In this document: positions 2,353 through 28,400 of the stretch, piece after piece
Layout of the letters: the number at the start of each line of letters is the position of its first letter
Position numbering within the stretch: position 1 is the stretch's first letter
DNA from: Candidatus Omnitrophota bacterium
GTDB taxonomy: Bacteria > Omnitrophota > Gorgyraeia > JAHIPI01
Direction of reading: 5' to 3'
Length of the DNA: 48,660 nucleotides
Assembly: GCA_018894435.1 (NCBI GenBank)
Contig: JAHIPI010000056.1
Span: 1 to 48,660 of the forward strand
Notes under the pieces: generated by a model
What the model was told of the DNA's origin: nothing
Databases searched by the model: none
What the model saw: only the letters and a program-made list of their open reading frames with translations
Position numbers and translations under genes: made by a program

Positions 2353-2643
2353 ATGCCAGGAAGAATGATGATGAGGAGAGATTCCGAAGGACCGCCGAGA
2401 AGGCGCAAAGATTTCAAAAAGAGAGAGGGCACTTTTTTCAGGAAGAAGGTATGCAGGTTCTGCGGTGATAAACAAAAAGACATAGATTACAAAAATGTTT
2501 TACGCTTGCAGAAATTTCTGACCGAGAAAGGCAAGATAATACCTTCCAGGATATCCGGTAACTGCGCGAAGCACCAGCGCCGTTTGGCACGCTCCATAAA
2601 AAGGGCGCGCGCTATAGCGCTATTACCTTACGTAGCGGAATAA
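2353..2643 (+). CDS. rpsR: 30S ribosomal protein S18
   Basis: The 96-aa product contains the S18 core ([18 protein letters not shown], then [20 protein letters not shown] and [19 protein letters not shown]). A frame extension to a TTG at 2338 exists. The ATG at 2353 is preferred because GGAGAG at 2341-2346 is placed correctly for it. The arginine/methionine-rich N-terminus (residues 1-35) is longer than in Escherichia coli. The CxxC and the later CxxH form a probable zinc site, as in zinc-binding S18 variants. Confidence 0.95.
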
Positions 2644-2666
2644 ATAGTGTTTTAGAGAGGGCCAAA

Positions 2667-3110
2667 ATGAAGCTCATATTGATTAGCGACGTAGACAAAC
2701 TCGGCAAAATGGGCGACGTGGTAAATGTTGCGGACGGTTTTGCCCAGAATTACCTTTTGCCCAAGAATCTGGCGATAAAAGAGACAAAAGACTCACTCAG
2801 GGTGCTGGAAGAGAAAAAAAGAAAATATGCCAAGGAAATTCAGAAAGAAAAGGCAAAATTCGAGGAGATGGCAAAAAAGATAAGCGCCGCCTCTTTCACG
2901 ATATCTGTAGCATGCGGCGAAGAGGATAAACTTTTTGGCTCTGTTACGGCAGAAGATATCGCGGATGCCTTTTCTTTGGAAAATATTCAAATAGACAAAA
3001 AACAGCTTAATCTAAAAGAGCCGATAAAAAAACTGGGCGTTTACCAGGTTGAAGTAAAACTACATCCCGAAATAGTGATAGCAGCTAAGATCTGGGTAGT
3101 AAAGAAGTAG
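2667..3110 (+). CDS. rplI: 50S ribosomal protein L9
   Basis: The 147-aa protein has the standard length of L9. The N-terminal rRNA-binding domain carries LGKMGDVVNVADGFAQNYLL followed by PKNLAI. A long charged helix (about 50-85) links it to the C-terminal domain. It sits 23 bases after rpsR and 3 bases before dnaB, so all belong to one transcript. Confidence 0.96.
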   Translation: MKLILISDVDKLGKMGDVVNVADGFAQNYLLPKNLAIKETKDSLRVLEEKKRKYAKEIQKEKAKFEEMAKKISAASFTISVACGEEDKLFGSVTAEDIADAFSLENIQIDKKQLNLKEPIKKLGVYQVEVKLHPEIVIAAKIWVVKK

Positions 3111-3113
3111 TAT

Positions 3114-4478
3114 ATGGCAGAAAATAATATAACAACTCAAAAGTTCCATTTAGAGAAGATTCCGCCGCAGAACGTAGAAGCAGAAATGGCCGTTCTCGGC
3201 TCTATGCTTATAGAAGAATCTGCCGTAGGCAACGCCATTGAGCTTATAGATGTAGAATCTTTCTACAAAGAATCCCACCGTATAATATACCGCGTTATAA
3301 TCGACCTTTTTAGCAGAAATTCCGCGATAGATCTGATAACCGTGATAGAAGAGCTGCGCAAAAGAGGCGAGCTTGACTCCGCCTCCGGCGCGGCGTATAT
3401 TACTTCTCTGACATCATCCATTCCTACCGCCGCGAATATCGGATACTACGCCAAGATAGTGAAAGAGAAGGCCATTCTCAGGAACCTCATAAATAATGCC
3501 ACCGAAATAGTACAGGACTGCTACGAATCCACGAGCGACGCCGACGGCATACTGGATAAAGCGGAAAGGCTTATCTTTGATGTAAGTTCCAAAAAGATAG
3601 AACAGAAGACGGTCCTCTTAAAAGATATCATAAAAGACAGCATCGAGACCATAGATAACCTTTATCAGAGAAAAGAAAACATAACGGGTATACCGACGGG
3701 TTATCACGAGTTTGATATAAGGACCGCGGGGTTACAGCCTTCAGACCTGATCGTTATAGCGGGAAGGCCGTCAATGGGCAAGAGCGCCTTTGCCACCTGT
3801 ATCGCGGAATATGCCGGTGTAGTAGAAAAGATACCGGTTGCTTTTTTCAGCTTGGAAATGTCAAAGGAGCAGCTTGTGCAGAGAATGCTCTGTTCGCACG
3901 CAAGAGTCAATGCCCACAATGTGAGGACGGGGTTTTTATCGCAGGCCGATTGGCCGAGACTCGTTACAGCCGCGAGCAGGTTATCGGAAGCGCCCATTTA
4001 TATAGACGATACGCCGTCAATAAGCGTTCTGGAATTAAAAGCGAAGGCGCGGCGCTTAAAGGCCCAGCACGACATTAAACTGGTGGTTCTCGACTATATG
4101 CAGCTTATGAACGGCCCGGCAAAGTCGGAAAACAGGCAGCAGGAGATCTCCGAAATATCGAGGGCGTTAAAGGCCCTTGCGAGAGAGCTGGATGTCCCGA
4201 TTATAGCGATAAGCCAGCTCTCCAGAGCGGTAGAGCAAAGGCAGGATCACCGTCCGCAGCTTTCCGACCTGAGAGAGTCCGGCGCCATTGAGCAGGACGC
4301 GGATCTGGTAGTGCTTTTATTGAGAGAGGAATACTATACTCCAAACGCCGAGGATAAAAAGGGCCTCGCGGAGATTATAATAGCCAAACAGCGCAATGGT
4401 CCCGTAGGGACAGTAAACCTCACTTTCATAAGCGAATACACGCGCTTTGAAAACAGGTTTAAAGGAGAAGAAGAATAA
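3114..4478 (+). CDS. dnaB: Replicative DNA helicase DnaB
   Basis: The 454-aa protein has the N-terminal DnaB domain (PPQNVEAEMAVLGSML, about 18-120) and a RecA-like C-terminal ATPase. The Walker A is GRPSMGKSA (about 218-226), the Walker B region is VVLDYMQLM, and RESGAIEQDADLVVLL also matches. It is the hexameric fork helicase that recruits primase. No intein is present. The start lies 3 bases after rplI and the stop codon overlaps the bamA ATG (TAATG). Confidence 0.97.
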   Translation: MAENNITTQKFHLEKIPPQNVEAEMAVLGSMLIEESAVGNAIELIDVESFYKESHRIIYRVIIDLFSRNSAIDLITVIEELRKRGELDSASGAAYITSLTSSIPTAANIGYYAKIVKEKAILRNLINNATEIVQDCYESTSDADGILDKAERLIFDVSSKKIEQKTVLLKDIIKDSIETIDNLYQRKENITGIPTGYHEFDIRTAGLQPSDLIVIAGRPSMGKSAFATCIAEYAGVVEKIPVAFFSLEMSKEQLVQRMLCSHARVNAHNVRTGFLSQADWPRLVTAASRLSEAPIYIDDTPSISVLELKAKARRLKAQHDIKLVVLDYMQLMNGPAKSENRQQEISEISRALKALARELDVPIIAISQLSRAVEQRQDHRPQLSDLRESGAIEQDADLVVLLLREEYYTPNAEDKKGLAEIIIAKQRNGPVGTVNLTFISEYTRFENRFKGEEE

Positions 4479-6835
4479 TGCGCGTAAAAATTTATTTATC
4501 TTTATTTCTCATATCTTTTTTTATGCTGCTATGCCAGAATGTTTTACTTGCCGAGGCAGAAACGCCCGCCGAGAATGAGACAGCCGCTGCCGCAGTTTCC
4601 GAGAAAGTGGTTGTCGAAAATATAAAAGAGGTGAAGATAATAAACAATAAGATCGTCTCTACCCCCACTATTCGCTCAAAACTGAGGACTACCGAAAGCG
4701 CGCTCTTTTCGCAGGAAATATTGAACGAAGACCTGAAGAGGCTTTACGAAATGGGATTTTTTGAGGATATAGCCATAGATGTCAAAGAAGAACCCGATGG
4801 ATATATCGTCAGTTTTATAGTTTTGGAAAAACCTCTGGTCGAGGGCGTATTCTTTAAAGGCAATAAAGCCATGCCCGAGGCAAAATTAAAGACAGAAATA
4901 AGCACCAAGGCAGACGACATGCTTGACCTTTCAAAATTGAACCGCGACCTTACGGTCATAAGAAAATTATACGAAAGCCAGGGGTATCAGCTGGCGAACG
5001 TGGATTATACGATACAGAAGGACGAGGAATTAAACAGGGCCACGGTGACCTTTAACGTAAACGAAAAGCAGCGTATAAGGGTAAAAAGTATAACGTTCGC
5101 CGGTAATTATTCCGTAAAGCCGGAAGAGCTTTCCAAGTTGATGGTCACGAAAACGGAATTTTTGTTTTTTATCCAGCCGGGTTATTTTAAGACCGAAGAA
5201 TTTGAAAACGACATGGAGACTTTAAGGGCCTATTATCAGAGTATGGGATATCTTGACGTCGGGGTAGAGCCCGAATTTGATTATAATGCCGACGGGACCC
5301 AGATGTATATAACGGTCAAGATAGACGAAGGCAAGAAATACGTTGTCGGCGATATCGCAATAACCGGCGCCGAAAAATTTCCGGAATTTGACATAAGAAA
5401 TACCCTCAGGATGACGCCCGGTAAGCCATATAGCGAATTGGCAATGCGCGAGGATATTGTGGGCATACAGCAGTTCTATTATGATAAGGGATACATGAGC
5501 TGCGATATTACTCCGGATGCGCTTTTAGATGCGGCGACAGGGAATATAAATATCAGCTACGCCATAACCGAGGGAGAGCTGATTTACGTAGATAAGGTGA
5601 GGATACTGGGCAATACGAAGACCAGGGATATCGTAATAAGAAGGGAACTGCGCGCTTATCCGGGCGAGCCTTTCAACGGCTCTCAGATACGCAGGAGCAA
5701 AGAGAGGCTCTATAATCTCGGTTATTTCGAAGATGTTGTGTTTAATACGGAATCCGGCAGCGCGCCGGATAAAAAAGACCTTAACGTAAGCGTTAAAGAG
5801 ACCAAGACCGGTGAATTCTCGTTCGGCGGCGGCTATAGCTCCATAGACAGGCTGATAGGTTTTGTCCAGATAGAGCAGAGAAATTTCGACCTGCTTAATT
5901 TCCCTACCTTTACCGGCGGAGGGCAGAACCTAAACGTCAGGGCCGAATTAGGTATGGTCAGGCAGAATTATGTGGTCAGCTGGACGGATCCATGGATATT
6001 GGGGTTTCCGTATCTTTTTGGATTTGATTTTTACAGGACGGAGCACGCGAGGACGACAGACCTCGGATATCTTTTTGACGAAGCGCGGACAGGCGGCGAC
6101 TTCCGGCTTGGCAAGGAATTTACCGAACACTTAAGAGCCGACGCTATGTATAAGCTGGAGCTGGTCGACATATCCAATGTCCACGAAGATGCCGCTCAGG
6201 ATATAAAAAACGAAGACGGCAAGAACTGGTTAAGCAGGCTGTTTGGCGGCATAAGATACGATACGCGCGACAATGTTTACGTGCCCACAAGAGGATTTCT
6301 TTTGGGCGGTTCGCTTGAAAATGTAGGCGGATTTCTTGGAGGCGACAAGAACTTTTTAAAATACGGCGCGGATGGCGAAATATATTTCAATTTCTTTGAA
6401 AAGCGCATTGTACTTATGTTTGTAACCAGCCTGGATTTGATCCAGAAATACGGCGATACCTCCGAGGTTCCGATATACGAAAGGTTTTACGCCGGCGGCG
6501 CGACCACGATAAGAGGCTATAAGGAAAGATATGTAACCCCCAGAGACTCGGCGACGAACGAACCGCTGGGAGGCAACGCGCGCTTTTTGGCTACTCTAGA
6601 GGCGACTTTCCCGGTCTTTGAAGACTTAATAAAAGGAGCGCTCTTTGCCGATTCGGGAAATGTCTGGAAAGGTTTTTCGGATCTTGACGCGAAACTCCGA
6701 TATAGCATAGGGGCGGGCGTGAGGATCAAGACGCCGTTAGGGCCGGTAAAGCTTGATTACGGCTGGCCTCTTACCGAGAATTACGGAGACGCGAAGAGAG
6801 GGCGTTTCTACTTTTCGATGGCACATGGATTCTAA
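4478..6835 (+). CDS. bamA: Outer membrane protein assembly factor BamA
   Basis: The 785-aa protein has a signal peptide (about 1-27, hydrophobic LFLISFFMLLCQNVLLAEA) and five POTRA domains (about 45-420). An Omp85 beta barrel completes it. The family hallmark RFYAGGATTIRGY lies near residues 667-679 and the chain ends in phenylalanine, as expected for an outer membrane barrel. BamA folds and inserts other barrels into the outer membrane. It overlaps dnaB by one base and leads a bamA-skp-lpxD-lpxC-fabZ-lpxI block, the common gene order of diderm bacteria. Confidence 0.97.
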   Translation: MRVKIYLSLFLISFFMLLCQNVLLAEAETPAENETAAAAVSEKVVVENIKEVKIINNKIVSTPTIRSKLRTTESALFSQEILNEDLKRLYEMGFFEDIAIDVKEEPDGYIVSFIVLEKPLVEGVFFKGNKAMPEAKLKTEISTKADDMLDLSKLNRDLTVIRKLYESQGYQLANVDYTIQKDEELNRATVTFNVNEKQRIRVKSITFAGNYSVKPEELSKLMVTKTEFLFFIQPGYFKTEEFENDMETLRAYYQSMGYLDVGVEPEFDYNADGTQMYITVKIDEGKKYVVGDIAITGAEKFPEFDIRNTLRMTPGKPYSELAMREDIVGIQQFYYDKGYMSCDITPDALLDAATGNINISYAITEGELIYVDKVRILGNTKTRDIVIRRELRAYPGEPFNGSQIRRSKERLYNLGYFEDVVFNTESGSAPDKKDLNVSVKETKTGEFSFGGGYSSIDRLIGFVQIEQRNFDLLNFPTFTGGGQNLNVRAELGMVRQNYVVSWTDPWILGFPYLFGFDFYRTEHARTTDLGYLFDEARTGGDFRLGKEFTEHLRADAMYKLELVDISNVHEDAAQDIKNEDGKNWLSRLFGGIRYDTRDNVYVPTRGFLLGGSLENVGGFLGGDKNFLKYGADGEIYFNFFEKRIVLMFVTSLDLIQKYGDTSEVPIYERFYAGGATTIRGYKERYVTPRDSATNEPLGGNARFLATLEATFPVFEDLIKGALFADSGNVWKGFSDLDAKLRYSIGAGVRIKTPLGPVKLDYGWPLTENYGDAKRGRFYFSMAHGF

Positions 6836-21312: not shown

Positions 21313-21525
21313 ATGCGCAACTGGCAGGCCTACCACAATTTTGAAGAGAAAGAAAAGGCATCTCTTTTAAGAAAGATGTCGGAGAAAGACTCTACAAATA
21401 TTTTGCGCCAGCTTTATAAATTTGCCGACGGTATGAAAAGAGAACCATATTTCACCCAATCGGACGAAGATAAAATAAAAAGTCTTATAAGAGTGCACCG
21501 CATGTTCGGAAAGATAAAGAAATGA
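21313..21525 (+). CDS. Small charged protein paired with a nucleotidyltransferase
   Basis: The 70-aa protein (MRNWQAYHNFEEKEKASLLR...) is not recognised. It is rich in Lys, Glu and Arg and looks helical, with no signal or membrane segment. Its stop codon overlaps the ATG of the next gene by 4 bases, so the pair is co-translated. A small protein in front of a minimal nucleotidyltransferase is the layout of several toxin-antitoxin systems, but the role is not shown. Confidence 0.7.
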   Translation: MRNWQAYHNFEEKEKASLLRKMSEKDSTNILRQLYKFADGMKREPYFTQSDEDKIKSLIRVHRMFGKIKK

Positions 21526-22091
21526 TTTCGCTGGATTTGCAGTTGAAATCCCTGGCGCAGTGCCTATCGGCGCAAAAGATAAAATATGCGGTTATCGGCG
21601 GAATAGCGGTGTTTGTTTACGGCGAGCCTCGTTTCACGGCCGATATAGACGTTAACATAATCCTCGAAAGCCGAAAAATAGAAGATTTTCTTAAGCAGGC
21701 CAAGAAATACGGATTTTTACCGCGCTCGCCGAGAGTTAGAAGGATAGCCCAAAAAGACGGCGTTATTCCTCTATTTTTTAAAAAGAGCGGACTAATAGGA
21801 AGAATCGATATTATTTTAGCGGAAAATCCGCTCGAATATTCGGGGATCAATAGAGCAGAGACTAGGAAAGTAAGTGCAGTTAAAGTAAAACTGGTGACTC
21901 CGGAAGATCTGATCCTGCATAAGATAACGAGCCAAAGGCCGCGGGACAAAGAAGATATAAGAGGCATCCTTATCAGACAAAAAGGCCGGCTGGACTTACG
22001 ATATATAAGGTCTTGGCTTGTAAAGATAGACAAGGCAAATTCAACGAAGCTCCTCAGTCGTTTCAACGGTTTGCTAAAAAAGATTATTTAA
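21522..22091 (+). CDS. Nucleotidyltransferase-fold protein (AbiEii/MNT-like)
   Basis: The 189-aa protein has the polymerase beta-like nucleotidyltransferase signature. YAVIGGIAVFVYGEPRFTADIDV supplies the GG and the two Asp of the metal site (about residues 23-45). VKLVTPEDLILHKITSQRPRDKEDI follows, which is usual in this family. Relatives include AbiEii toxins and MNT/DUF6036 proteins, which transfer nucleotides to tRNA or proteins. Substrate unknown. It forms a pair with the upstream 70-aa gene. Confidence 0.82.
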   Translation: MISLDLQLKSLAQCLSAQKIKYAVIGGIAVFVYGEPRFTADIDVNIILESRKIEDFLKQAKKYGFLPRSPRVRRIAQKDGVIPLFFKKSGLIGRIDIILAENPLEYSGINRAETRKVSAVKVKLVTPEDLILHKITSQRPRDKEDIRGILIRQKGRLDLRYIRSWLVKIDKANSTKLLSRFNGLLKKII

Positions 22092-22123
22092 GACATATAA
22101 ATTTTTGATATGATATTTTGTGT

Positions 22124-22237
22124 GGGCCGCTAGCTAATGAGCACATAACTTACGGAGCTATCAAACCCGTGTTTGCGACGTAAGTTATAAGTGCGAATTA
22201 ATCCCGCCACACGAAGTATGGCGGGACTCATCTGGTA
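22124..22237 (+). pseudogene. Partial tRNA-Lys duplicate interrupted by a repeat
   Basis: GGGCCGCTAGCT (22124-22135) plus about 20 bases before it duplicate the 5' flank and first 12 bases of the intact tRNA-Lys at 22,274. After a 93-base insert the match resumes with CATCTGGTA (22229-22237), the next tRNA bases. The rest of the tRNA is missing, so it is not functional. Confidence 0.8.
22136..22228 (+). repeat. Composite two-hairpin repeat, copy B, inserted in a tRNA fragment
   Basis: It opens AATGAGCACATAACTTACGG. Hairpin 1 pairs ATAACTTACG with CGTAAGTTAT around about 22 bases. The spacer GAATTAATCCCGCC leads into hairpin 2 (CCCGCC/GGCGGG). The junctions share CT on both sides, a possible 2-bp target duplication. 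Confidence 0.8.
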
Positions 22238-22273
22238 TGGCATTGTAAGTTTTTTTAATATGGTATTTTGTGT

Positions 22274-22349
22274 GGGCCGCTAGCTCATCTGGTAGAGCAC
22301 CGCTCTTTTAAGGCGGGCGTGGAAGGTTCAAGTCCTTCGCGGCTCACCA
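22274..22349 (+). tRNA. tRNA-Lys (anticodon TTT), CCA encoded
   Basis: The 76-base cloverleaf has acceptor GGGCCGC/GCGGCTC (one G-U) and a D-arm GCTC...GAGC. The anticodon stem is CCGCT/GGCGG with loop CTTTTAA, and the T-arm is GAAGG-TTCAAGT-CCTTC. Discriminator A is followed by an encoded CCA. The T run right after it begins a T8/A8 hairpin (22350-22370) that probably ends transcription. Confidence 0.96.
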
Positions 22350-22370
22350 TTTTTTTTCGAAGAAAAAAAA
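22350..22370 (+). terminator. T8C/GA8 hairpin behind tRNA-Lys
   Basis: TTTTTTTTC (22350-22358) and GAAAAAAAA (22362-22370) are perfect arms with a 3-base loop. The T run follows the CCA end directly. Confidence 0.5.
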
Positions 22371-22373
22371 TGA

Positions 22374-22411
22374 CCCTGAGCAAGGCCGCCTTCGGCGGCC
22401 GCGTCGAAGGG
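22374..22411. repeat. CCCTGAGC...GTCGAAGGG hairpin repeat
   Basis: GGCCGCC (22384-22390) and GGCGGCC (22394-22400) form a perfect 7-bp stem with a TTC loop. It lies inside CCCTGAGC and GTCGAAGGG flanks. Repeats with these flanks are widespread in bacterial genomes as interspersed elements. Confidence 0.65.
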
Positions 22412-22433
22412 CCATAATTCGACGCGAGGACTT

Positions 22434-22712
22434 ATGTGGTACCTATATATCCTCAGATGCAAAGACGGCAACTTATACACCGGTGTCACAATCGACATTC
22501 CTCATCGCATAGCTCGCCATAATGCCAAAAAAGCCTCAAAATATACAAGGGTTCGCACGCCTGTAGCCTTGGCTTATAAAGAAGTTTATAGGACAAAATC
22601 AAAAGCGCTCATTCGTGAGGCCCAGATTAAGCGCTGGACCAAGAAGAAAAAACTCGCCTTAGTAACCCACGACAAATCCCAACTTATCGAACTTAGCAAA
22701 TCCCGCGATTAA
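22434..22712 (+). CDS. GIY-YIG domain protein (UPF0213 type)
   Basis: The 92-aa protein is a stand-alone GIY-YIG domain: WYLYILRCKDGNLYTGVT holds the YI(L) and YTG motifs, with Arg in HRIARHNAKKASKYT and Glu in LIREAQIKRW. The family binds or cuts nucleic acid, and the biological role of the short forms is unclear. GCGAGGA lies before the ATG. It is the first gene 3' of tRNA-Lys. Confidence 0.88.
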   Translation: MWYLYILRCKDGNLYTGVTIDIPHRIARHNAKKASKYTRVRTPVALAYKEVYRTKSKALIREAQIKRWTKKKKLALVTHDKSQLIELSKSRD

Positions 22713-22779
22713 TCAACTCCCGCCCCTCCAAGCTCGCCCTAATAAGCCGCTGAATCCTATTGCTCAAACAAAATTTTAC

Positions 22780-22808
22780 TTGACAAATGCTATAGCATGT
22801 GCTATACT
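22780..22808 (+). promoter_or_regulatory. Strong sigma70 promoter with operator (O1)
   Basis: TTGACA (22780-22785), a 17-base spacer and TATACT (22803-22808). The 19-bp sequence TGCTATAGCATGTGCTATA (22788-22806) fills the spacer and overlaps the -10 box. It contains the palindrome TATAGCA-TG-TGCTATA, a good repressor site. Transcription would start about 5 bases before the ATG at 22820. Confidence 0.8.
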
Positions 22809-22819
22809 CCTTTTTAGAA

Positions 22820-22996
22820 ATGAGCGATAAGCTAATAGGGGACATCAAGTACTATTTACAGCGCGAGAAGATTAGCCAGGAAGATTTTGCTCATAAGATC
22901 GGCGTTTCGTTTTCAACGCTAAACAGGTGGCTTAATAAGAAAACGAAACCGAAATCTAAAGCAATAATCGAAGCAGTAAAAAGAGCAATTGGCTAA
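22820..22996 (+). CDS. Small XRE-family HTH regulator
   Basis: The 58-aa protein is essentially one helix-turn-helix domain: LQREKISQEDFAHKIGVSFS, then TLNRWLNKKTKPKSKAI. The frame extends to a GTG at 22799 inside the promoter, so the ATG at 22820 is the real start. There is no Shine-Dalgarno and the promoter leaves a leader of only about 5 bases. Two inverted copies of a 19-bp sequence flank the gene, one in its own promoter, so it is probably a self-repressing regulator. Confidence 0.87.
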   Translation: MSDKLIGDIKYYLQREKISQEDFAHKIGVSFSTLNRWLNKKTKPKSKAIIEAVKRAIG

Positions 22997-23018
22997 GACA
23001 TATTTTTTTAACCTAAAA

Positions 23019-23037
23019 TATAGCATATGCTATAGCA
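23019..23037 (-). promoter_or_regulatory. Second operator copy (O2), inverted
   Basis: On the - strand it reads TGCTATAGCATATGCTATA and differs from O1 at one of 19 positions. It contains the perfect palindrome TATAGCATATGCTATA (23019-23034). It stands 9 bases before the start codon of the small membrane peptide gene. Confidence 0.75.
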
Positions 23038-23046
23038 GGTGAGATA

Positions 23047-23187
23047 ATGGATTTGAGAAAAGTGATCATATTCTCTACTTTGATAAGCCTGAATATTGTA
23101 ATCTGGCATGAAATACTGGGTACAGAGTTTTTACACCTTGTGTTAGCAGTGATTTTGTTACTACTTTTTATCGTCGGAGAGAAATAG
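23047..23187 (+). CDS. 46-residue two-helix membrane peptide
   Basis: A short open frame encodes MDLRKVIIFSTLISLNIVIW, then HEILGTEF and a second hydrophobic stretch LHLVLAVILLLLFIVGEK. Two membrane helices of 15-18 residues are likely. AGGTGAG lies 4 bases before the ATG. The O2 operator directly upstream links it to the XRE regulator. Small hydrophobic peptides next to an HTH gene may be toxins, holin-like or signalling peptides. The family is not recognised. Confidence 0.6.
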   Translation: MDLRKVIIFSTLISLNIVIWHEILGTEFLHLVLAVILLLLFIVGEK

Positions 23188-23216
23188 CTATTGGTGGCAG
23201 TACGCCAAAAATGAAA

Positions 23217-23272
23217 ATATTTTAAAAAAGTTTGAAAGAAAATAGCTACCCCATACGTATATATAGGTGAGA
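23217..23272 (+). repeat. Remnant of a RAYT leader sequence
   Basis: The bases TTGAAAGAAAA, TAGCTACCCCATACGTATAT and AGGTGA match the leader of the intact transposase (12,725-12,776) at most positions, including the ATACGTAT palindrome. The Shine-Dalgarno half and the transposase gene are gone. The remainder of 23,188-23,350 holds only the promoter region of the next gene. Confidence 0.65.
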
Positions 23273-23365
23273 GATAGAAAGCCAATAAGAATTTTAGCCT
23301 TGTAACATATTCGTATATTTATATGTAGAAAATATATGCTATAATACTATATGATGAGGACAAAT

Positions 23366-24277
23366 ATGGAACTACTTACTAATACCAGTGAGAAAATGCT
23401 AACTCTAAAAGACGTTGCTATTTTGACTGATAAATCCGAAGGCTTTATTAAATCAAAAATAGCGAAAGATGAACTAAAAAAATATGACAAATGGGGTAAA
23501 CCTCTAGAAGATCCGGTTAAATACAAAGGATATTTCAAGCTCTGTGATATAAAATATGTATTTCATATAGAACCTGATTTAAAACGATTGGCAATTCCTC
23601 ATTATAATAACAATACTCATTATGAAGATAAAGACGTTCATCCAAAAGAAGTAGTTAGAATTTTTCCTCCGAACGTTTATAAGAAAATAGAGAATGTCAG
23701 AACCAATCGATTTGATGTTTGTATAATGACAGCCAAGATTGCAACTAGCGAGCTTCTAGTTCCTTTTAAGTATGAGAACAATCAAAGCATCAACAACAAT
23801 CTTAAGGAGACTTTTAGGATTATAGAAAGAGCGAGTGGCTTACTTACAGATAACGGTTCACTTTTAATATATGACATTCCTAGATGGTTGCCTTATTATG
23901 CCGTTCATTTAGCCGAGAAATTAGTATTCAAATATTGGATTGCCATTCGTACATTTGATATTTATGAGAAGAAAATGTTTGACCCTGTATCATTAGGAGT
24001 TTTATTTATGGTAAAGAAGAACGAACGTTTTGTTATTAATACTGTAAGAGAGCCTCATAAATATTGTAAGTATTGCAAAGAAATTCTGAAAGATTATGGA
24101 GGGAAAAAACACCTGATGCATCAAAAAGGTGCAGCGCTTTCGGACGTTTGGAAATTTATGAAAACCGACCATCACAATATTAGCCAGTTAAATGAAATAC
24201 CACGCCCCGTACTCAGGAGACTCATTAACTTAACTTGTACAGATAAAAACCGTTTACTGATGCTGAAATTAGATTGA
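23366..24277 (+). CDS. HTH plus catalytically degenerate DNA methyltransferase-like subunit
   Basis: The 303-aa protein (ATG at 23366 after GAGGA; an ATG at 23351 just behind a TATAAT at 23340 would be leaderless) has an N-terminal MerR/excisionase-like HTH (LTLKDVAILTDKSEGFIKSK, about 11-65). From about residue 115 it aligns with the methyltransferase encoded next. FDVCIMTAK stands where that enzyme has VDLTFADPPY, GSLLIYDIPRW matches GSLYVLNLPKW, and LSDVWKFM matches VSDIWFDL. The catalytic DPPY is lost and the chain stops before the SAM-binding FxGxG region. It retains a CKYC motif and DYGGKKH. It is probably a DNA-recognition partner, not an enzyme. Confidence 0.75.
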   Translation: MELLTNTSEKMLTLKDVAILTDKSEGFIKSKIAKDELKKYDKWGKPLEDPVKYKGYFKLCDIKYVFHIEPDLKRLAIPHYNNNTHYEDKDVHPKEVVRIFPPNVYKKIENVRTNRFDVCIMTAKIATSELLVPFKYENNQSINNNLKETFRIIERASGLLTDNGSLLIYDIPRWLPYYAVHLAEKLVFKYWIAIRTFDIYEKKMFDPVSLGVLFMVKKNERFVINTVREPHKYCKYCKEILKDYGGKKHLMHQKGAALSDVWKFMKTDHHNISQLNEIPRPVLRRLINLTCTDKNRLLMLKLD

Positions 24278-24288
24278 GAATTCAGACC

Positions 24289-25080
24289 ATGAAAAATGTG
24301 GAATTAAATAGAGTATATATAGAAGACTGCATAGAGTTTATGAAGAAAATGCCCGCAGAATCGGTAGACTTAACATTTGCAGATCCTCCCTATAATCTGC
24401 AAAAAAGTTATTCACGCTATAAAGATGATAAAACTAGTCATGAGTATATTGCTTGGTGTAATCTTTGGCTTGAACAGATGGCAAGAATACTTAAAAAAAC
24501 AGGATCGTTATATGTTTTAAATCTACCAAAATGGGCTGTCTATCATGCTGTCTTTCTTGATAGGCTTCTCTGTAGACAGAACTGGATAGTTTGGGATGCT
24601 CTGTCAACCCCTCTTGGAAAACTAATGCCCGCACACTATGCCTTACTCTTTTATACAAAACAAAGAAAAGATTACGTTTTTAATCCTCAAACCACGGTCA
24701 ATGATTATGATTCATGCTATAGAGAAAAATGTGTCAGAATGAGAAAAGATATAGAGGGCCGCCCGGTATCTGATATTTGGTTCGACCTTCATAGGATAAG
24801 ACATAGTAGAAAACGCGATAAACACCCCTGCCAACTACCATTGAAATTATTAGAGAGGATTATTTTGGCATCAACGAATATGGGCGGTATAGTATTCGAT
24901 CCGTTTATGGGAGTGGGAACAACCGCTGTAGTTGCAAAGTTATTAAATAGAAATTTTATAGGTTGCGAAATAGACAATAAGTATGAAAAAATTATCAGTG
25001 ATAAGGTAGAAGATTATAATAACTATAGGAGGGAGCTCAGTACGATAGCAGATTTGGAAAGGTCAGGAAAGTTCTTTTAA
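24289..25080 (+). CDS. Beta-class DNA adenine/cytosine-N4 methyltransferase
   Basis: The 263-aa enzyme has motif IV DPPY at residues 32-35, a central target region, and then the SAM-binding motif I FDPFMGVGTTAVVAK near 203. Motif IV before motif I is the beta-class order (as in M.RsrI, CcrM). It transfers a methyl group to the exocyclic amine of A or C. A TTG at 24274 overlapping the preceding stop is also open, but the ATG at 24289 fits the family start (NRVYIEDCIEFM). Its 3' end overlaps the convergent nuclease gene by 18 bases. Target sequence unknown. Confidence 0.92.
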   Translation: MKNVELNRVYIEDCIEFMKKMPAESVDLTFADPPYNLQKSYSRYKDDKTSHEYIAWCNLWLEQMARILKKTGSLYVLNLPKWAVYHAVFLDRLLCRQNWIVWDALSTPLGKLMPAHYALLFYTKQRKDYVFNPQTTVNDYDSCYREKCVRMRKDIEGRPVSDIWFDLHRIRHSRKRDKHPCQLPLKLLERIILASTNMGGIVFDPFMGVGTTAVVAKLLNRNFIGCEIDNKYEKIISDKVEDYNNYRRELSTIADLERSGKFF

Positions 25081-25752
25081 GAATTTTTTTCTATCTTTTT
25101 TAGGAATATGTTTTATATGTTTCTTTATAATTCTTCTTGATCTATAAACATCTGTTCCACTGCGTAAATCCTCAAATTGTTCCAATGTTGTAATAGGCGA
25201 ATCAGCATAAAAATCTTTTGGCCTCAAGTTTCCATCCTTCTCTCTATAACGTAACGCCCCATCTTTATTCAAGGCTAAGAATTTATAAAATAAATCAATT
25301 TGCACTTCCACAATCTTTTTTATGGTATCATCAAAGTGATATATAACGAAGAGATAGTATATATTATCGCCACCAAACTGTTTTAATTTTTTCTCCCACA
25401 TATTTAACGTACCCATATCATTTTCACTATTTTTACATTTTATCCATTTCTTATCTTTTAGTTCAACGACATTACCACATTTATATTCAATGGCTAGCTC
25501 CGGGGAAGTTTTTAATGTAAAATCTGGAAATTGGTTTTTATCTTTTGCAATGGCATAATTTATAAGCCCCTGCTTTTTGAAATGATCAGCTAAAAATGCT
25601 GAAATATAAGGTTGGATTTCTGTACCAAAACTTACGTAATTGAAATCTCTAGTTTGGAGAGTCTTTTGAAGATGATCTTTAAGTGGCTTATGACAGGTCT
25701 TCAGAACTTGTTTTGCTTTTTTCAAGTCACCCATATTATCTAGCCTTTTCAT
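25063..25752 (-). CDS. Probable PD-(D/E)XK restriction endonuclease
   Basis: The 229-aa protein has the nuclease metal site PDFTLKTSPELAIEYK, with Asp77, Glu89 and Lys91. DIYYLFVIYHFDD-like strands follow (actual text NIYYLFVIYHFDD), and DSPITTLEQFEDLRSGTDVY lies near the end. Convergence with a methyltransferase and lack of other domains fit a type II restriction enzyme. It resembles no enzyme I can name. A strong promoter (25761-25789, - strand) would start the RNA within a few bases of the ATG, with no Shine-Dalgarno. The gene is AT-rich compared with the core genes. Confidence 0.78.
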   Translation of the reverse strand: MKRLDNMGDLKKAKQVLKTCHKPLKDHLQKTLQTRDFNYVSFGTEIQPYISAFLADHFKKQGLINYAIAKDKNQFPDFTLKTSPELAIEYKCGNVVELKDKKWIKCKNSENDMGTLNMWEKKLKQFGGDNIYYLFVIYHFDDTIKKIVEVQIDLFYKFLALNKDGALRYREKDGNLRPKDFYADSPITTLEQFEDLRSGTDVYRSRRIIKKHIKHIPKKDRKKFLKELS

Positions 25753-25760
25753 CAGTTTAT

Positions 25761-25789
25761 AGAATACTCCATATAAAAGAGGTTGTCAA
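25761..25789 (-). promoter_or_regulatory. Promoter of the nuclease gene
   Basis: On the - strand TTGACA (25789-25784), a 17-base spacer and TATTCT (25766-25761). Only 8 bases separate the -10 box from the start codon, so the transcript should be leaderless. Confidence 0.7.
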
Positions 25790-25823
25790 TAGTAGAGGAG
25801 CAATATATAATCACTAATAGTCA

Positions 25824-25852
25824 TTTACGATCAATAGGAAGTATGGCATAAT
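25824..25852 (+). promoter_or_regulatory. Promoter of the Myb/HTH-like gene
   Basis: TTTACG (25824-25829), a 17-base spacer and CATAAT (25847-25852). The ATG follows after 6 bases, so the RNA would begin at or next to the start codon. Confidence 0.5.
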
Positions 25853-25858
25853 TACATT

Positions 25859-26137
25859 ATGGGACGAAAATGGTCTAAACAAGAACTGGATTATCTTACA
25901 AAGAAAAAAGGCCGGATGACCTATAGGAATATTGCAAGAGTTTTACACAGATCAGTTCGGTCCATAAAAATGACAACCATTCGTATTGACATAGCTAATC
26001 CTAAACCACGTTGGACAGAAAAAGAAGAAATTAAATTAAGAAAATTATTGCAACAATATCTATCTTATACAAATATAGGACGCTTAATGCATAGAAGCAG
26101 ATTTAGCATTGCTTCAAAAGCAAGGCGTTTGGACTAA
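25859..26137 (+). CDS. Tandem Myb/SANT- or HTH-like DNA-binding protein
   Basis: The 92-aa protein consists of two related units: WSKQELDYLTKKKGRMTYRN followed by IARVLHRSVRSIKMTT, and WTEKEEIKLRKLLQQYLSYT followed by NIGRLMHRSRFSIASKARRL. Each begins with a Trp helix and ends in an HRS-x(3)-I/S recognition helix, the pattern of Myb/SANT or GcrA-type domains. Placed divergently from the nuclease, it could be a controller protein of the restriction locus or a relic of a homing endonuclease. The role is inferred. Confidence 0.75.
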   Translation: MGRKWSKQELDYLTKKKGRMTYRNIARVLHRSVRSIKMTTIRIDIANPKPRWTEKEEIKLRKLLQQYLSYTNIGRLMHRSRFSIASKARRLD

Positions 26138-26168
26138 AAATAAAGTAAACCATAATCGTTTGGCGCGC

Positions 26169-26197
26169 AAATCCCAAGCAAATTCTGCTTGGGATTT
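26169..26197 (+). terminator. Perfect 12-bp hairpin after the Myb/HTH-like gene
   Basis: AAATCCCAAGCA (26169-26180) and TGCTTGGGATTT (26186-26197) form a perfect stem with a 5-base loop. GTGTTTTTG follows. It closes the restriction island. Confidence 0.7.
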
Positions 26198-26276
26198 GGT
26201 GTTTTTGGGGGTATAATTTGGGGTAGAAAAGCGCCACCCTGCGAAAAAGTGACCGGTAAAGTCGTATTTAGATACT

Positions 26277-26900
26277 ATGGGTTTCCCTGAAGGGGTAGAT
26301 ACGGTTTCGCTATTTGAGCAGCAGCTCCAAAAAGGTAAGAATTTTGTTCCTATTAGCATCTTAAAAAAGCAAGCCAGGGAGCAAAGAGAACGGCTAGAAA
26401 CAATCTTCTTGGAAATGATTTATAAAATCCTTGGCAACACAAAGGGAACAGAAAACGCAATTTATTATCCTGTAGCAGAATTTGTATCGAATATATTCGA
26501 TCATAGTAAAAAAGACGAAGGATTTGTTTTTGGCCAACTGTATCAGTCTAAGAATTTTTTGGATATGTGTATAGTTGATACTGGGAGAGGCCTATCAACG
26601 GCTTACAAAGAGGAGAATAAAATAGTATTATCAGACGAAGAGGCCATTAAAAAAGCGTTAGAAGGATATTCAACGAAGCCCGACAAAGAGCGCGGTTATG
26701 GAATACGCACTTCAATAAGAGTTGTTTGTGAGGCCTTAAAAGGCGGCTTTGTGTTACTTTCCGGTAGCGCTGCATTTTTATCGATTGAAAATAAAAAGAC
26801 CATAGTCAGCCTGCCGAATTTTTACTGGCAAGGCGTAATTATTGCCTACAGAATACCAAGACCGATGTATCCTGTCAGTATTATGCCCTATATTGAATAA
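26277..26900 (+). CDS. GHKL-type ATP-binding protein (RsbW-like kinase fold)
   Basis: The 207-aa protein has an HATPase_c fold. The N box is EFVSNIFDHSK (Glu68, Asn72, Asp75-His76), G1 is DTGRGL (101-106), and G2 is GYGIRTS (140-146). There is no histidine phosphorylation domain. Stand-alone GHKL proteins next to STAS proteins are usually serine kinases or switch factors in partner-switching. The two following genes encode STAS-like proteins, which supports this. A TATAAT lies at 26212. The N-terminus has no match I know. Confidence 0.82.
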   Translation: MGFPEGVDTVSLFEQQLQKGKNFVPISILKKQAREQRERLETIFLEMIYKILGNTKGTENAIYYPVAEFVSNIFDHSKKDEGFVFGQLYQSKNFLDMCIVDTGRGLSTAYKEENKIVLSDEEAIKKALEGYSTKPDKERGYGIRTSIRVVCEALKGGFVLLSGSAAFLSIENKKTIVSLPNFYWQGVIIAYRIPRPMYPVSIMPYIE

Positions 26901-26938
26901 TGCGGCTGAGTATGGTATAATCTTGCGAGGTTAAAAAT

Positions 26939-27295
26939 ATGAAAACAGTTAAGATAGCCGTTTCCAAAAAGTTAGCTCCGATTGTGGGATCTCGTGATGT
27001 GGCGTATAGCCTTAAGAATCTCATAGAGAAAATCCATGCCCGGGCCATCGATTTAGACTTTCAGGATGTGGAATTTGTTTCTCGCTCTGCTGCGCACGAG
27101 CTTTTAGTGTTAAAAGAAAAGTTTAATAAGAGACTTTTTTGGAAAAAAGCAATTAATTTTATTAATACCAGCGATAATGTTGCTGATATGTTTAGAACAG
27201 TTGCGGCAAATCGAGCCCTCCCTAAACAGAAAGAAATAGAACTAAATATACAGAAAGTAGACGTAAATTACCTTTCTAAATTAGCTGCCTCATAA
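26939..27295 (+). CDS. STAS-like domain protein (DUF4325)
   Basis: The 118-aa protein has the DUF4325 pattern: a short strand MKTVKIAVSKKLAPIVGSRD, helix VAYSLKNLIEKI, LDFQDVEFVSRSAAHELLVL with the switch-helix start RSAAHE, and a final helix. DUF4325 proteins are commonly encoded beside GHKL ATPases such as the one upstream. A TATAAT (26916-26921) sits just before the gene, with GAGG close to the start. Confidence 0.8.
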   Translation: MKTVKIAVSKKLAPIVGSRDVAYSLKNLIEKIHARAIDLDFQDVEFVSRSAAHELLVLKEKFNKRLFWKKAINFINTSDNVADMFRTVAANRALPKQKEIELNIQKVDVNYLSKLAAS

Positions 27296-27419
27296 TTTTG
27301 CCCTTCCAAATGTACATTCTAGAGATATGATATATCCAAAATCTGTCCAAAAACAGAGGCAAAGGTAGATATATTTTACTTTAGATTTGCCATTGATAGA
27401 GGTATAATGTTGTTAATAT

Positions 27420-27842
27420 ATGAGACGACCAAAAATCCTACGTAAGATAAAAAGCATAGTTAAAAAGCGACTTGCTCCAAACCCACCCGCAGAAACCCAT
27501 ATCAAAAGTATAGGCTCTTATAAAAGTGTTACTATTATACGCCTCATGGGCAGCATCACCTCACAAACCATCCATAATGCAAGAAGCGAGTTTTCCGCGA
27601 AAACGAAAAACAAAAAGATTAAAAATATCCTATTTGATTTAAAAGAAGTGACAGAGACTGATACATCAGGCATAGCTGTTTTGATTGATCTATTCCGAGT
27701 GATGAAGACCCGCCAAATGGGGGACAAGATAGGCCTTATTAACGTCCCTAAGAAGATAAAAAACCTGTTTTTGATCTCAAAGGCCAAAGGATTCTTTAAG
27801 GGGTACCCGTCGGAAGAAAAGGCCATAAAGGCGCTAGAGTAA
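27420..27842 (+). CDS. STAS domain protein (anti-anti-sigma factor type)
   Basis: The 140-aa protein has a basic N-terminus (about 1-30) and a STAS domain with VTIIRLMGSITSQT, NILFDLKEVTETDTSGIAVL and LINVPKKIKNLF. Ser83 in DTSG is the expected phosphorylation site of SpoIIAA/RsbV proteins. With the GHKL protein at 26,277 and the DUF4325 protein it completes a partner-switching set. The target sigma factor is not in the neighbourhood. TATAAT (27403-27408) leaves a leader of about 5 bases. Confidence 0.85.
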   Translation: MRRPKILRKIKSIVKKRLAPNPPAETHIKSIGSYKSVTIIRLMGSITSQTIHNARSEFSAKTKNKKIKNILFDLKEVTETDTSGIAVLIDLFRVMKTRQMGDKIGLINVPKKIKNLFLISKAKGFFKGYPSEEKAIKALE

Positions 27843-27868
27843 ATTTGCATTTTTTATGAGAATTTAGT

Positions 27869-27899
27869 TGACAAGTCAATAGTTGAGTGGTAAACTATC
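27869..27899 (+). promoter_or_regulatory. Promoter and candidate MarR operator
   Basis: TTGACA (27869-27874), a 17-base spacer and TAAACT (27892-27897). ATAGTT (27880-27885) and AACTAT (27894-27899) are inverted arms overlapping the -10 box, suited to autorepression. Confidence 0.6.
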
Positions 27900-27923
27900 T
27901 GGCAAAAGAGAGGTAGTTTTATC

Positions 27924-28400
27924 ATGAGCATTTTTCGTGAACTTGGTGTACGTGAAGGTAAAGACAGAGTAAATGAAGAGGTTATTTATAATATAGCGAA
28001 GGCCTACACGGTTATTGATGGTGTTATTTCAGGCTTTCTTTCCAAATACGATTTAAGCCCCGCAAAATTCAATATCCTCCTAATGGTCAAGCATGTCGGT
28101 AAAGATAAGGGCATATCCCAGAACGAAATATCGAAGCTCCTTCTCGTGACTACCTCTAATATTACGCGCATGATAGATAAACTTGAAAAAGATAAATATG
28201 TTGAGCGCATATCGCAGAAAGGTGATAGGCGGGTAAATCTTATAAAGATTACAAAGAAAGGCTCTGATTTGCTGGATAAAGTTTGGCCTCATTATAAAGA
28301 GAAGATAGATAAATTAATAGGTAATAGTTTTTCTGGCAGCGAGAAAAAAATACTGAATGATTCCTTGTGTAAAATAAAAAATATTATAAAGGAGGCATAA
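27924..28400 (+). CDS. MarR-family transcriptional regulator
   Basis: The 158-aa protein has the winged-helix MarR layout. The dimer helices lie at both ends, and the HTH GISQNEISKLLLVTTSNITR, recognition part MIDKLEKDKYVERI and wing QKGDRRVNLIKITKKG are clear. An inverted repeat sits over its own -10 box. It ends one base before the next start codon, so it probably controls the DUF2339 membrane protein and the protease behind it. AGAGAGGTAG precedes the ATG. Confidence 0.9.
   Translation: MSIFRELGVREGKDRVNEEVIYNIAKAYTVIDGVISGFLSKYDLSPAKFNILLMVKHVGKDKGISQNEISKLLLVTTSNITRMIDKLEKDKYVERISQKGDRRVNLIKITKKGSDLLDKVWPHYKEKIDKLIGNSFSGSEKKILNDSLCKIKNIIKEA

What the first reader, a model, noticed from the sequence alone, without database searches (positions are those of the whole stretch)
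23366..25752. Restriction-modification locus with an active/inactive methyltransferase pair
Two adjacent genes encode related methyltransferase folds. The second has DPPY and the SAM motif. The first aligns through the middle (GSLLIYDIPRW with GSLYVLNLPKW, LSDVWKFM with VSDIWFDL) but has lost DPPY and ends before the SAM motif, and it gained an N-terminal HTH. Beta-class enzymes such as M.RsrI work as dimers in which one subunit methylates and the other reads DNA. Here the two jobs seem split into separate proteins, a bacterial parallel to METTL3-METTL14 and MTA1-MTA9. A PD-(D/E)XK nuclease completes the set. The alignment was done by eye and dimer formation is inferred.
Basis: partly seen in the sequence, partly recalled or inferred. 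Interest (0 to 1): 0.75.

Follow-up and report, generated by a model that had tools for sequence, protein, structure and literature searches.

The report
Methyltransferase split into reader and catalyst
A bacterial DNA-cutting defence locus encodes two crippled relatives of one DNA-marking enzyme, one keeping only the chemistry and the other mainly the DNA-reading part, so they probably work together where relatives use a single protein; no second example was found.

Summary
Gene 1 (23366-24277) and gene 2 (24289-25080) are related beta-class amino-methyltransferases. Their closest relatives are single-gene enzymes carrying, in one chain, DPPF, a C-x2-C...KDYGGKK...SDVW block (target-recognition position), a basic stretch and the SAM motif. 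The two window proteins have lost complementary parts. Gene 1 keeps the recognition block (11 of 13 conserved residues) but 14 of 60 elsewhere, with no DPPF and no SAM motif. Gene 2 is the reverse (5 of 13; 50 of 60). Fisher p = 1e-6; the smallest p among 7,140 pairs of ordinary relatives is 0.018. The AlphaFold model of gene 1 is a partial methyltransferase fold with a confident recognition block; in gene 2 that block is the poorly modelled part. The convergent gene (25063-25752) is PD-(D/E)XK-like; its only detected homologue sits beside one intact methyltransferase of this family. Best reading: a Type II restriction-modification system whose modification enzyme became two interdependent subunits. 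Complex formation, activity and target are untested. The N-terminal HTH is unsupported, the METTL3-METTL14 parallel is analogy, and the modified base is open because M.BamHI-type relatives make 4mC. No second copy of the pair was found.

The parts
23366..24277 (+). Gene 1 (P0001, ORF open from 23351): catalytically dead methyltransferase paralogue keeping the recognition block; proposed reader subunit
24053..24154 (+). Recognition block of gene 1 (REPHKYCKYCKEILKDYGGKKHLMHQKGAALSDVW), kept at 11 of 13 conserved positions
   Evidence: pLDDT about 90 over most of it
24289..25080 (+). Gene 2 (P0002): beta-class methyltransferase with DPPY and SAM motif but without the KDYGG block; proposed catalytic subunit
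25063..25752 (-). Gene 3 (P0003): PD-(D/E)XK-type protein, proposed restriction endonuclease, convergent with gene 2
22820..22996 (+). Small HTH_3 gene, possible C-protein-like controller
   Evidence: Pfam HTH_3 8.2e-10
22791..22806 (.). Operator-like palindrome TATAGCATGTGCTATA over the promoter of the HTH_3 gene
23019..23034 (.). Second, perfect copy of the palindrome (TATAGCATATGCTATA)
23318..23345 (+). Promoter-like site of gene 1 (TTTATA-16-TATAAT) overlapped by operator half-site 23334-23343
   Evidence: consensus matches only
25761..25789 (-). Promoter-like site of gene 3 (TTGACA-17-TATTCT)
   Evidence: consensus match only

Best explanation
A Type II restriction-modification locus whose methyltransferase has become two interdependent subunits. 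Relatives carry catalytic core and recognition block in one chain, and in at least one dimeric beta-class enzyme (EcoP15I Mod) one subunit already reads DNA while the other methylates. Here one copy (P0002) kept DPPY, the SAM site and the basic stretch and lost the recognition block; the other (P0001) kept the recognition block and part of the fold and lost the catalytic and SAM sites. Proposed mechanism: P0001 and P0002 assemble as a heteromer, P0001 positions the complex on the site, P0002 methylates the base, and P0003 cuts unmethylated sites. Shown: homology, motif losses, their complementarity, the predicted fold, and linkage of a P0003 homologue to an intact enzyme of this family. Inferred: heteromer formation, activity, specificity, base and restriction.
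For: Complementary retention of family-conserved residues, p = 4e-8 over 121 relatives and 1e-6 with a family chosen without the KDYGG pattern; smallest p among 7,140 relative pairs is 0.018. Nearest relatives of P0002 in searches anchored on P0002 alone are KDYGG enzymes. P0001 model: methyltransferase fold, top PDB match M.MboIIA 1.8e-11, recognition block pLDDT about 90; P0002 core confident but its recognition region 47-68. Tandem, nearly overlapping genes. P0003 homologue (2e-32) directly upstream of one intact enzyme of the same clade. EcoP15I precedent: one Mod subunit recognises, the other methylates (PMC4490356).
Against: Only one instance found, so conservation of the pair cannot be shown. 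P0001 lacks about half of the fold (the SAM half after the first strand), a more extreme reduction than METTL14 or MTA9. No complex prediction was possible. P0001's place in the tree is unresolved. The recognition role of the KDYGG block rests on its position between motifs VIII and X in beta-class order, not on experiment.
Confidence: 0.64

Rival explanations
1. Gene 2 is a self-sufficient methyltransferase with a new, shorter recognition loop; gene 1 is a decaying remnant of an older or duplicated enzyme.
For: Relatives of gene 1 are intact enzymes; gene 1 is truncated and very divergent (long branch); single occurrence; gene 2 keeps every catalytic motif.
Against: A 303-codon intact ORF; loss in gene 1 is not uniform, the recognition block being kept at 11 of 13 against 14 of 60 elsewhere (p = 6e-5); gene 2's recognition region is reduced and poorly modelled.
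Confidence: 0.2
2. Gene 1 is a DNA-binding regulator of the locus: a methyltransferase turned repressor that binds the recognition site in the promoter region, as M.SsoII does through its extra N-terminal domain, while gene 2 methylates alone.
For: Keeps the putative DNA-reading block, has an extra N-terminal region of about 95 residues, is the first gene of the tandem; regulatory methyltransferases exist (M.SsoII, abstract of PMC3978073).
Against: No HTH detected; a separate HTH_3 gene with operator-like palindromes already lies upstream; does not explain the loss of the block in gene 2.
Confidence: 0.11
3. The locus is not a restriction system but an orphan methylation module with an unrelated or inactive nuclease-like neighbour.
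For: P0003 matches no curated family; no cleavage evidence; genes 2 and 3 are convergent.
Against: P0003's only detected homologue is directly upstream of an intact methyltransferase of the same clade, with PD...(D/E)xK residues shared.
Confidence: 0.05

Closest known systems
M.BamHI-type / DPPF-KDYGG single-chain beta-class amino-methyltransferases (L003 Geobacillus, L007 Desulfocapsa, L008, L013)
   Same: Same fold, motif order and, between the two window proteins, the same conserved blocks; L003 and L007 likewise lie beside a small HTH gene and a nuclease, there BamHI-like
   Different: There one protein holds everything; here catalysis and recognition block are in two proteins, and the nuclease has no match to the BamHI family
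Type III EcoP15I Mod2, and dimeric beta-class enzymes generally
   Same: Division of labour between a recognising and a methylating beta-class subunit (PMC4490356)
   Different: Identical subunits there; two degenerate, non-identical subunits here; no Res helicase
METTL3-METTL14 and MTA1-MTA9
   Same: Active/inactive pair of related beta-class methyltransferases, one partner without catalytic and SAM residues (PMC9174199)
   Different: MT-A70 family, eukaryotic; both partners keep a whole fold; the window proteins are not members
M.AquI and M.EcoHK31I
   Same: Bacterial restriction-modification methyltransferases made of two polypeptides (PMC3404938)
   Different: C5-cytosine enzymes divided into two consecutive or separate pieces of one chain; here two overlapping paralogues with complementary losses
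Type I HsdM-HsdS
   Same: Separate catalytic and recognition subunits (general knowledge)
   Different: HsdS is not a methyltransferase paralogue

Membership tests
Beta-class amino-methyltransferase (gene 2) | Motif order IV (DPPY), recognition region, X, I (FxGxG) | tested here: met
   Sequence; Pfam N6_N4_Mtase 7e-49; M.BceJIV 7e-33, M.MboIIA 1.4e-31
Beta-class amino-methyltransferase (gene 1) | Catalytic DPPY/F and SAM motif I | tested here: not met
   Both absent
Beta-class amino-methyltransferase (gene 1) | Methyltransferase fold | tested here: met
   Partial fold; Foldseek M.MboIIA 1.8e-11, M.RsrI 1.2e-8. The model used an alignment of relatives, so it is not independent of the homology
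M.BamHI-like DPPF/KDYGG family (gene 2) | Placement inside the clade | tested here: met
   Within a 27-row branch, support 99/88; long end branch, so exact placement is uncertain
M.BamHI-like DPPF/KDYGG family (gene 2) | KDYGG recognition block | tested here: not met
   5 of 13 conserved residues kept; block of 40 residues against 43-48 in relatives
MT-A70 (METTL3/14, MTA1/9) | MT-A70 profile match and DPPW | tested here: not met
   No such Pfam match; the motif is DPPY
Type II restriction-modification system | Methyltransferase gene linked to a nuclease gene in a recurring pairing | tested here: met
   P0003 homologue immediately upstream of an intact relative in L013-L015, three near-identical contigs that count as one case
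Type II restriction-modification system | Site-specific cleavage blocked by cognate methylation | not testable with these tools
   Needs biochemistry
Heteromeric methyltransferase | Physical complex of the two subunits | not testable with these tools
   No multimer prediction was offered

The most novel reading that the evidence does not exclude
A bacterial beta-class DNA amino-methyltransferase that evolved by subfunctionalisation into an obligate catalyst-reader heteromer within a restriction-modification system, an independent bacterial counterpart of METTL3-METTL14, with a recognition subunit reduced to part of the fold.
Probability: 0.58. Interest if true: 0.78.

Novelty: new variant of a known kind. 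Interest (0 to 1): 0.62.

Why it matters
In homodimeric beta-class methyltransferases labour can be divided within the dimer, but each chain keeps both abilities. A natural pair in which each chain has lost what the other kept would be direct genetic evidence for that division. It would show a route from homodimer to METTL3-METTL14-like heterodimers and offer a two-part enzyme in which recognition and catalysis can be studied separately. A 2022 structural paper describes the well-studied bacterial adenine methyltransferases as monomers or homodimers (PMC9174199).

Tried and rejected
Further copies of the pair: none in 384 genomes of the phylum, 384 of the class (partly the same genomes), the order, or the 85k-species genome contigs by the LKDYGGK-based scan (the best 80 loci hold ordinary active-type enzymes, a few cut by contig ends or with one variant motif), IMG/VR, phages and plasmids. 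An orthologue with a changed KDYGGK would have been missed by the genome-contig scan. P0003 relatives: none in phages, plasmids or the phylum; only L013-L015 in IMG/VR. HTH in the gene 1 extension: no support. Selection bias was considered: the genome contigs set was chosen by a KDYGG pattern, so the test was repeated without it. Literature searches for a described bacterial active/inactive amino-methyltransferase pair found none in the library; subscription journals are largely absent from it.

Full report
What is there. Gene 1 (P0001, start best placed at 23366) and gene 2 (P0002, 24289-25080) are tandem on the + strand; a possible TTG start of gene 2 overlaps the stop of gene 1. Gene 3 (P0003, 25063-25752) is convergent. 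Gene 2 is a standard beta-class amino-methyltransferase (Pfam 7e-49; M.BceJIV and M.MboIIA). Gene 1 is related to it (blastp 9e-9; PADLOC MTase_II 2.7e-21) but has neither DPPY/F nor the SAM motif.

Relatives. Anchored on either protein, the nearest relatives are single-chain enzymes with DPPF, a C-x2-C...KDYGGKK...SDVW block, a basic RHxKxRDxHPCQLP stretch and DPFxGTGTT. Two sit beside nucleases matching Pfam BamHI (L003 and L007), so this is the M.BamHI-like branch. M.BamHI makes 4mC (it serves as a 4mC control in PMC8885841). DPPY is usual for adenine enzymes, but the modified base should be treated as open.

Complementary loss. In beta-class motif order the region between motifs VIII and X is the target-recognition region (established knowledge), which is where the KDYGG block lies. 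Across 121 relatives, P0001 keeps 17 of 22 well-conserved residues of that block but 1 of 17 around DPPF and 2 of 22 around the SAM motif; P0002 keeps 7, 14 and 16. With relatives gathered without the KDYGG pattern, P0001 keeps 11 of 13 and 14 of 60, P0002 5 of 13 and 50 of 60. Of the residues kept by only one of the two, the block gives 6 to 0 for P0001 and the rest 1 to 37 for P0002 (p = 1e-6). None of 7,140 pairs of ordinary relatives falls below p = 0.018. Decay of one copy alone would not be expected to produce this; it suggests that the two proteins now share one job. A remaining bias is that relatives were confirmed by similarity to P0001.

Structure. The P0001 model is confident over most of the stretch from about residue 101 on, apart from some loops, with the recognition block near pLDDT 90 and the N-terminal 95 residues or so unreliable. 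Its best PDB matches are M.MboIIA, M.BceJIV, M1.HpyAVI, CcrM and M.RsrI; MTA1/MTA9 and METTL3-METTL14 appear at about 1e-5. P0002 gives pTM 0.81 with a confident core, but its recognition region is 47-68. These models used alignments of relatives and are not independent of the homology.

The nuclease. P0003 has no credible family match. Its only detected homologues, in three near-identical viral contigs (L013-L015), lie directly upstream of one intact DPPF/KDYGG enzyme and share the PD...(D/E)xK residues. That enzyme falls in the same branch as P0002. In that relative the arrangement is one nuclease plus one methyltransferase; in the window the methyltransferase role is filled by two genes.

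Regulation. A small HTH_3 gene (22820-22996) lies upstream. A 16-bp palindrome overlaps its promoter and recurs at 23019-23034, and a half-site overlaps the -10 box of gene 1. A C-protein-like controller is plausible; it is inference.

Mechanism. EcoP15I shows one Mod subunit recognising DNA while the other methylates (PMC4490356). A pair in which one copy can only do the chemistry and the other can only read DNA is a natural end-point of such a dimer. I rate this about 0.64. The main weakness is that the pair was seen once, so constraint on gene 1 rests on the within-protein pattern alone. The rivals are a remnant gene 1 beside a self-sufficient gene 2 (0.20), and gene 1 as a regulator (0.11).

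Comparison. It works like METTL3-METTL14 in outline but is not a member of MT-A70. It differs from M.AquI and M.EcoHK31I, in which one enzyme is divided between two polypeptides without two overlapping paralogues (PMC3404938). I found no described bacterial amino-methyltransferase pair of this sort in the searchable literature, which is limited.

Noticed in passing
L050, L056, L061, L066, L100 (about 2600-5800 of each locus): A recurrent three-gene operon in very diverse phyla: a roughly 410-aa SPPY methyltransferase, a middle protein (about 325 aa in most) and the DPPF/KDYGG methyltransferase; the middle protein may be the nuclease.
   Followed up: partly
window 23047-23187: A short ORF for a 46-aa hydrophobic, membrane-like peptide just downstream of the perfect operator palindrome at 23019-23034; possibly controlled by the HTH_3 protein.
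   Followed up: no
window 25859-26137: A 92-aa protein with two weak Myb/homeodomain-like repeats beside the nuclease gene.
   Followed up: no
window 22001-28000: GC drops to 34-37% against about 43-49% in the preceding 22 kb, fitting a horizontally acquired segment downstream of the ribosome recycling factor gene.
   Followed up: partly
window 21313-22712: Small ORF plus a DUF2204/AbiEii-like nucleotidyltransferase, then a GIY-YIG protein, next to the restriction-modification locus; possible defence cluster.
   Followed up: no
L054 5715-7322 (-): An SPPY methyltransferase with an extra N-terminal domain resembling a MerR-type HTH by eye, convergent with and overlapping the KDYGG enzyme; no measurable similarity to the gene 1 extension.
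   Followed up: partly
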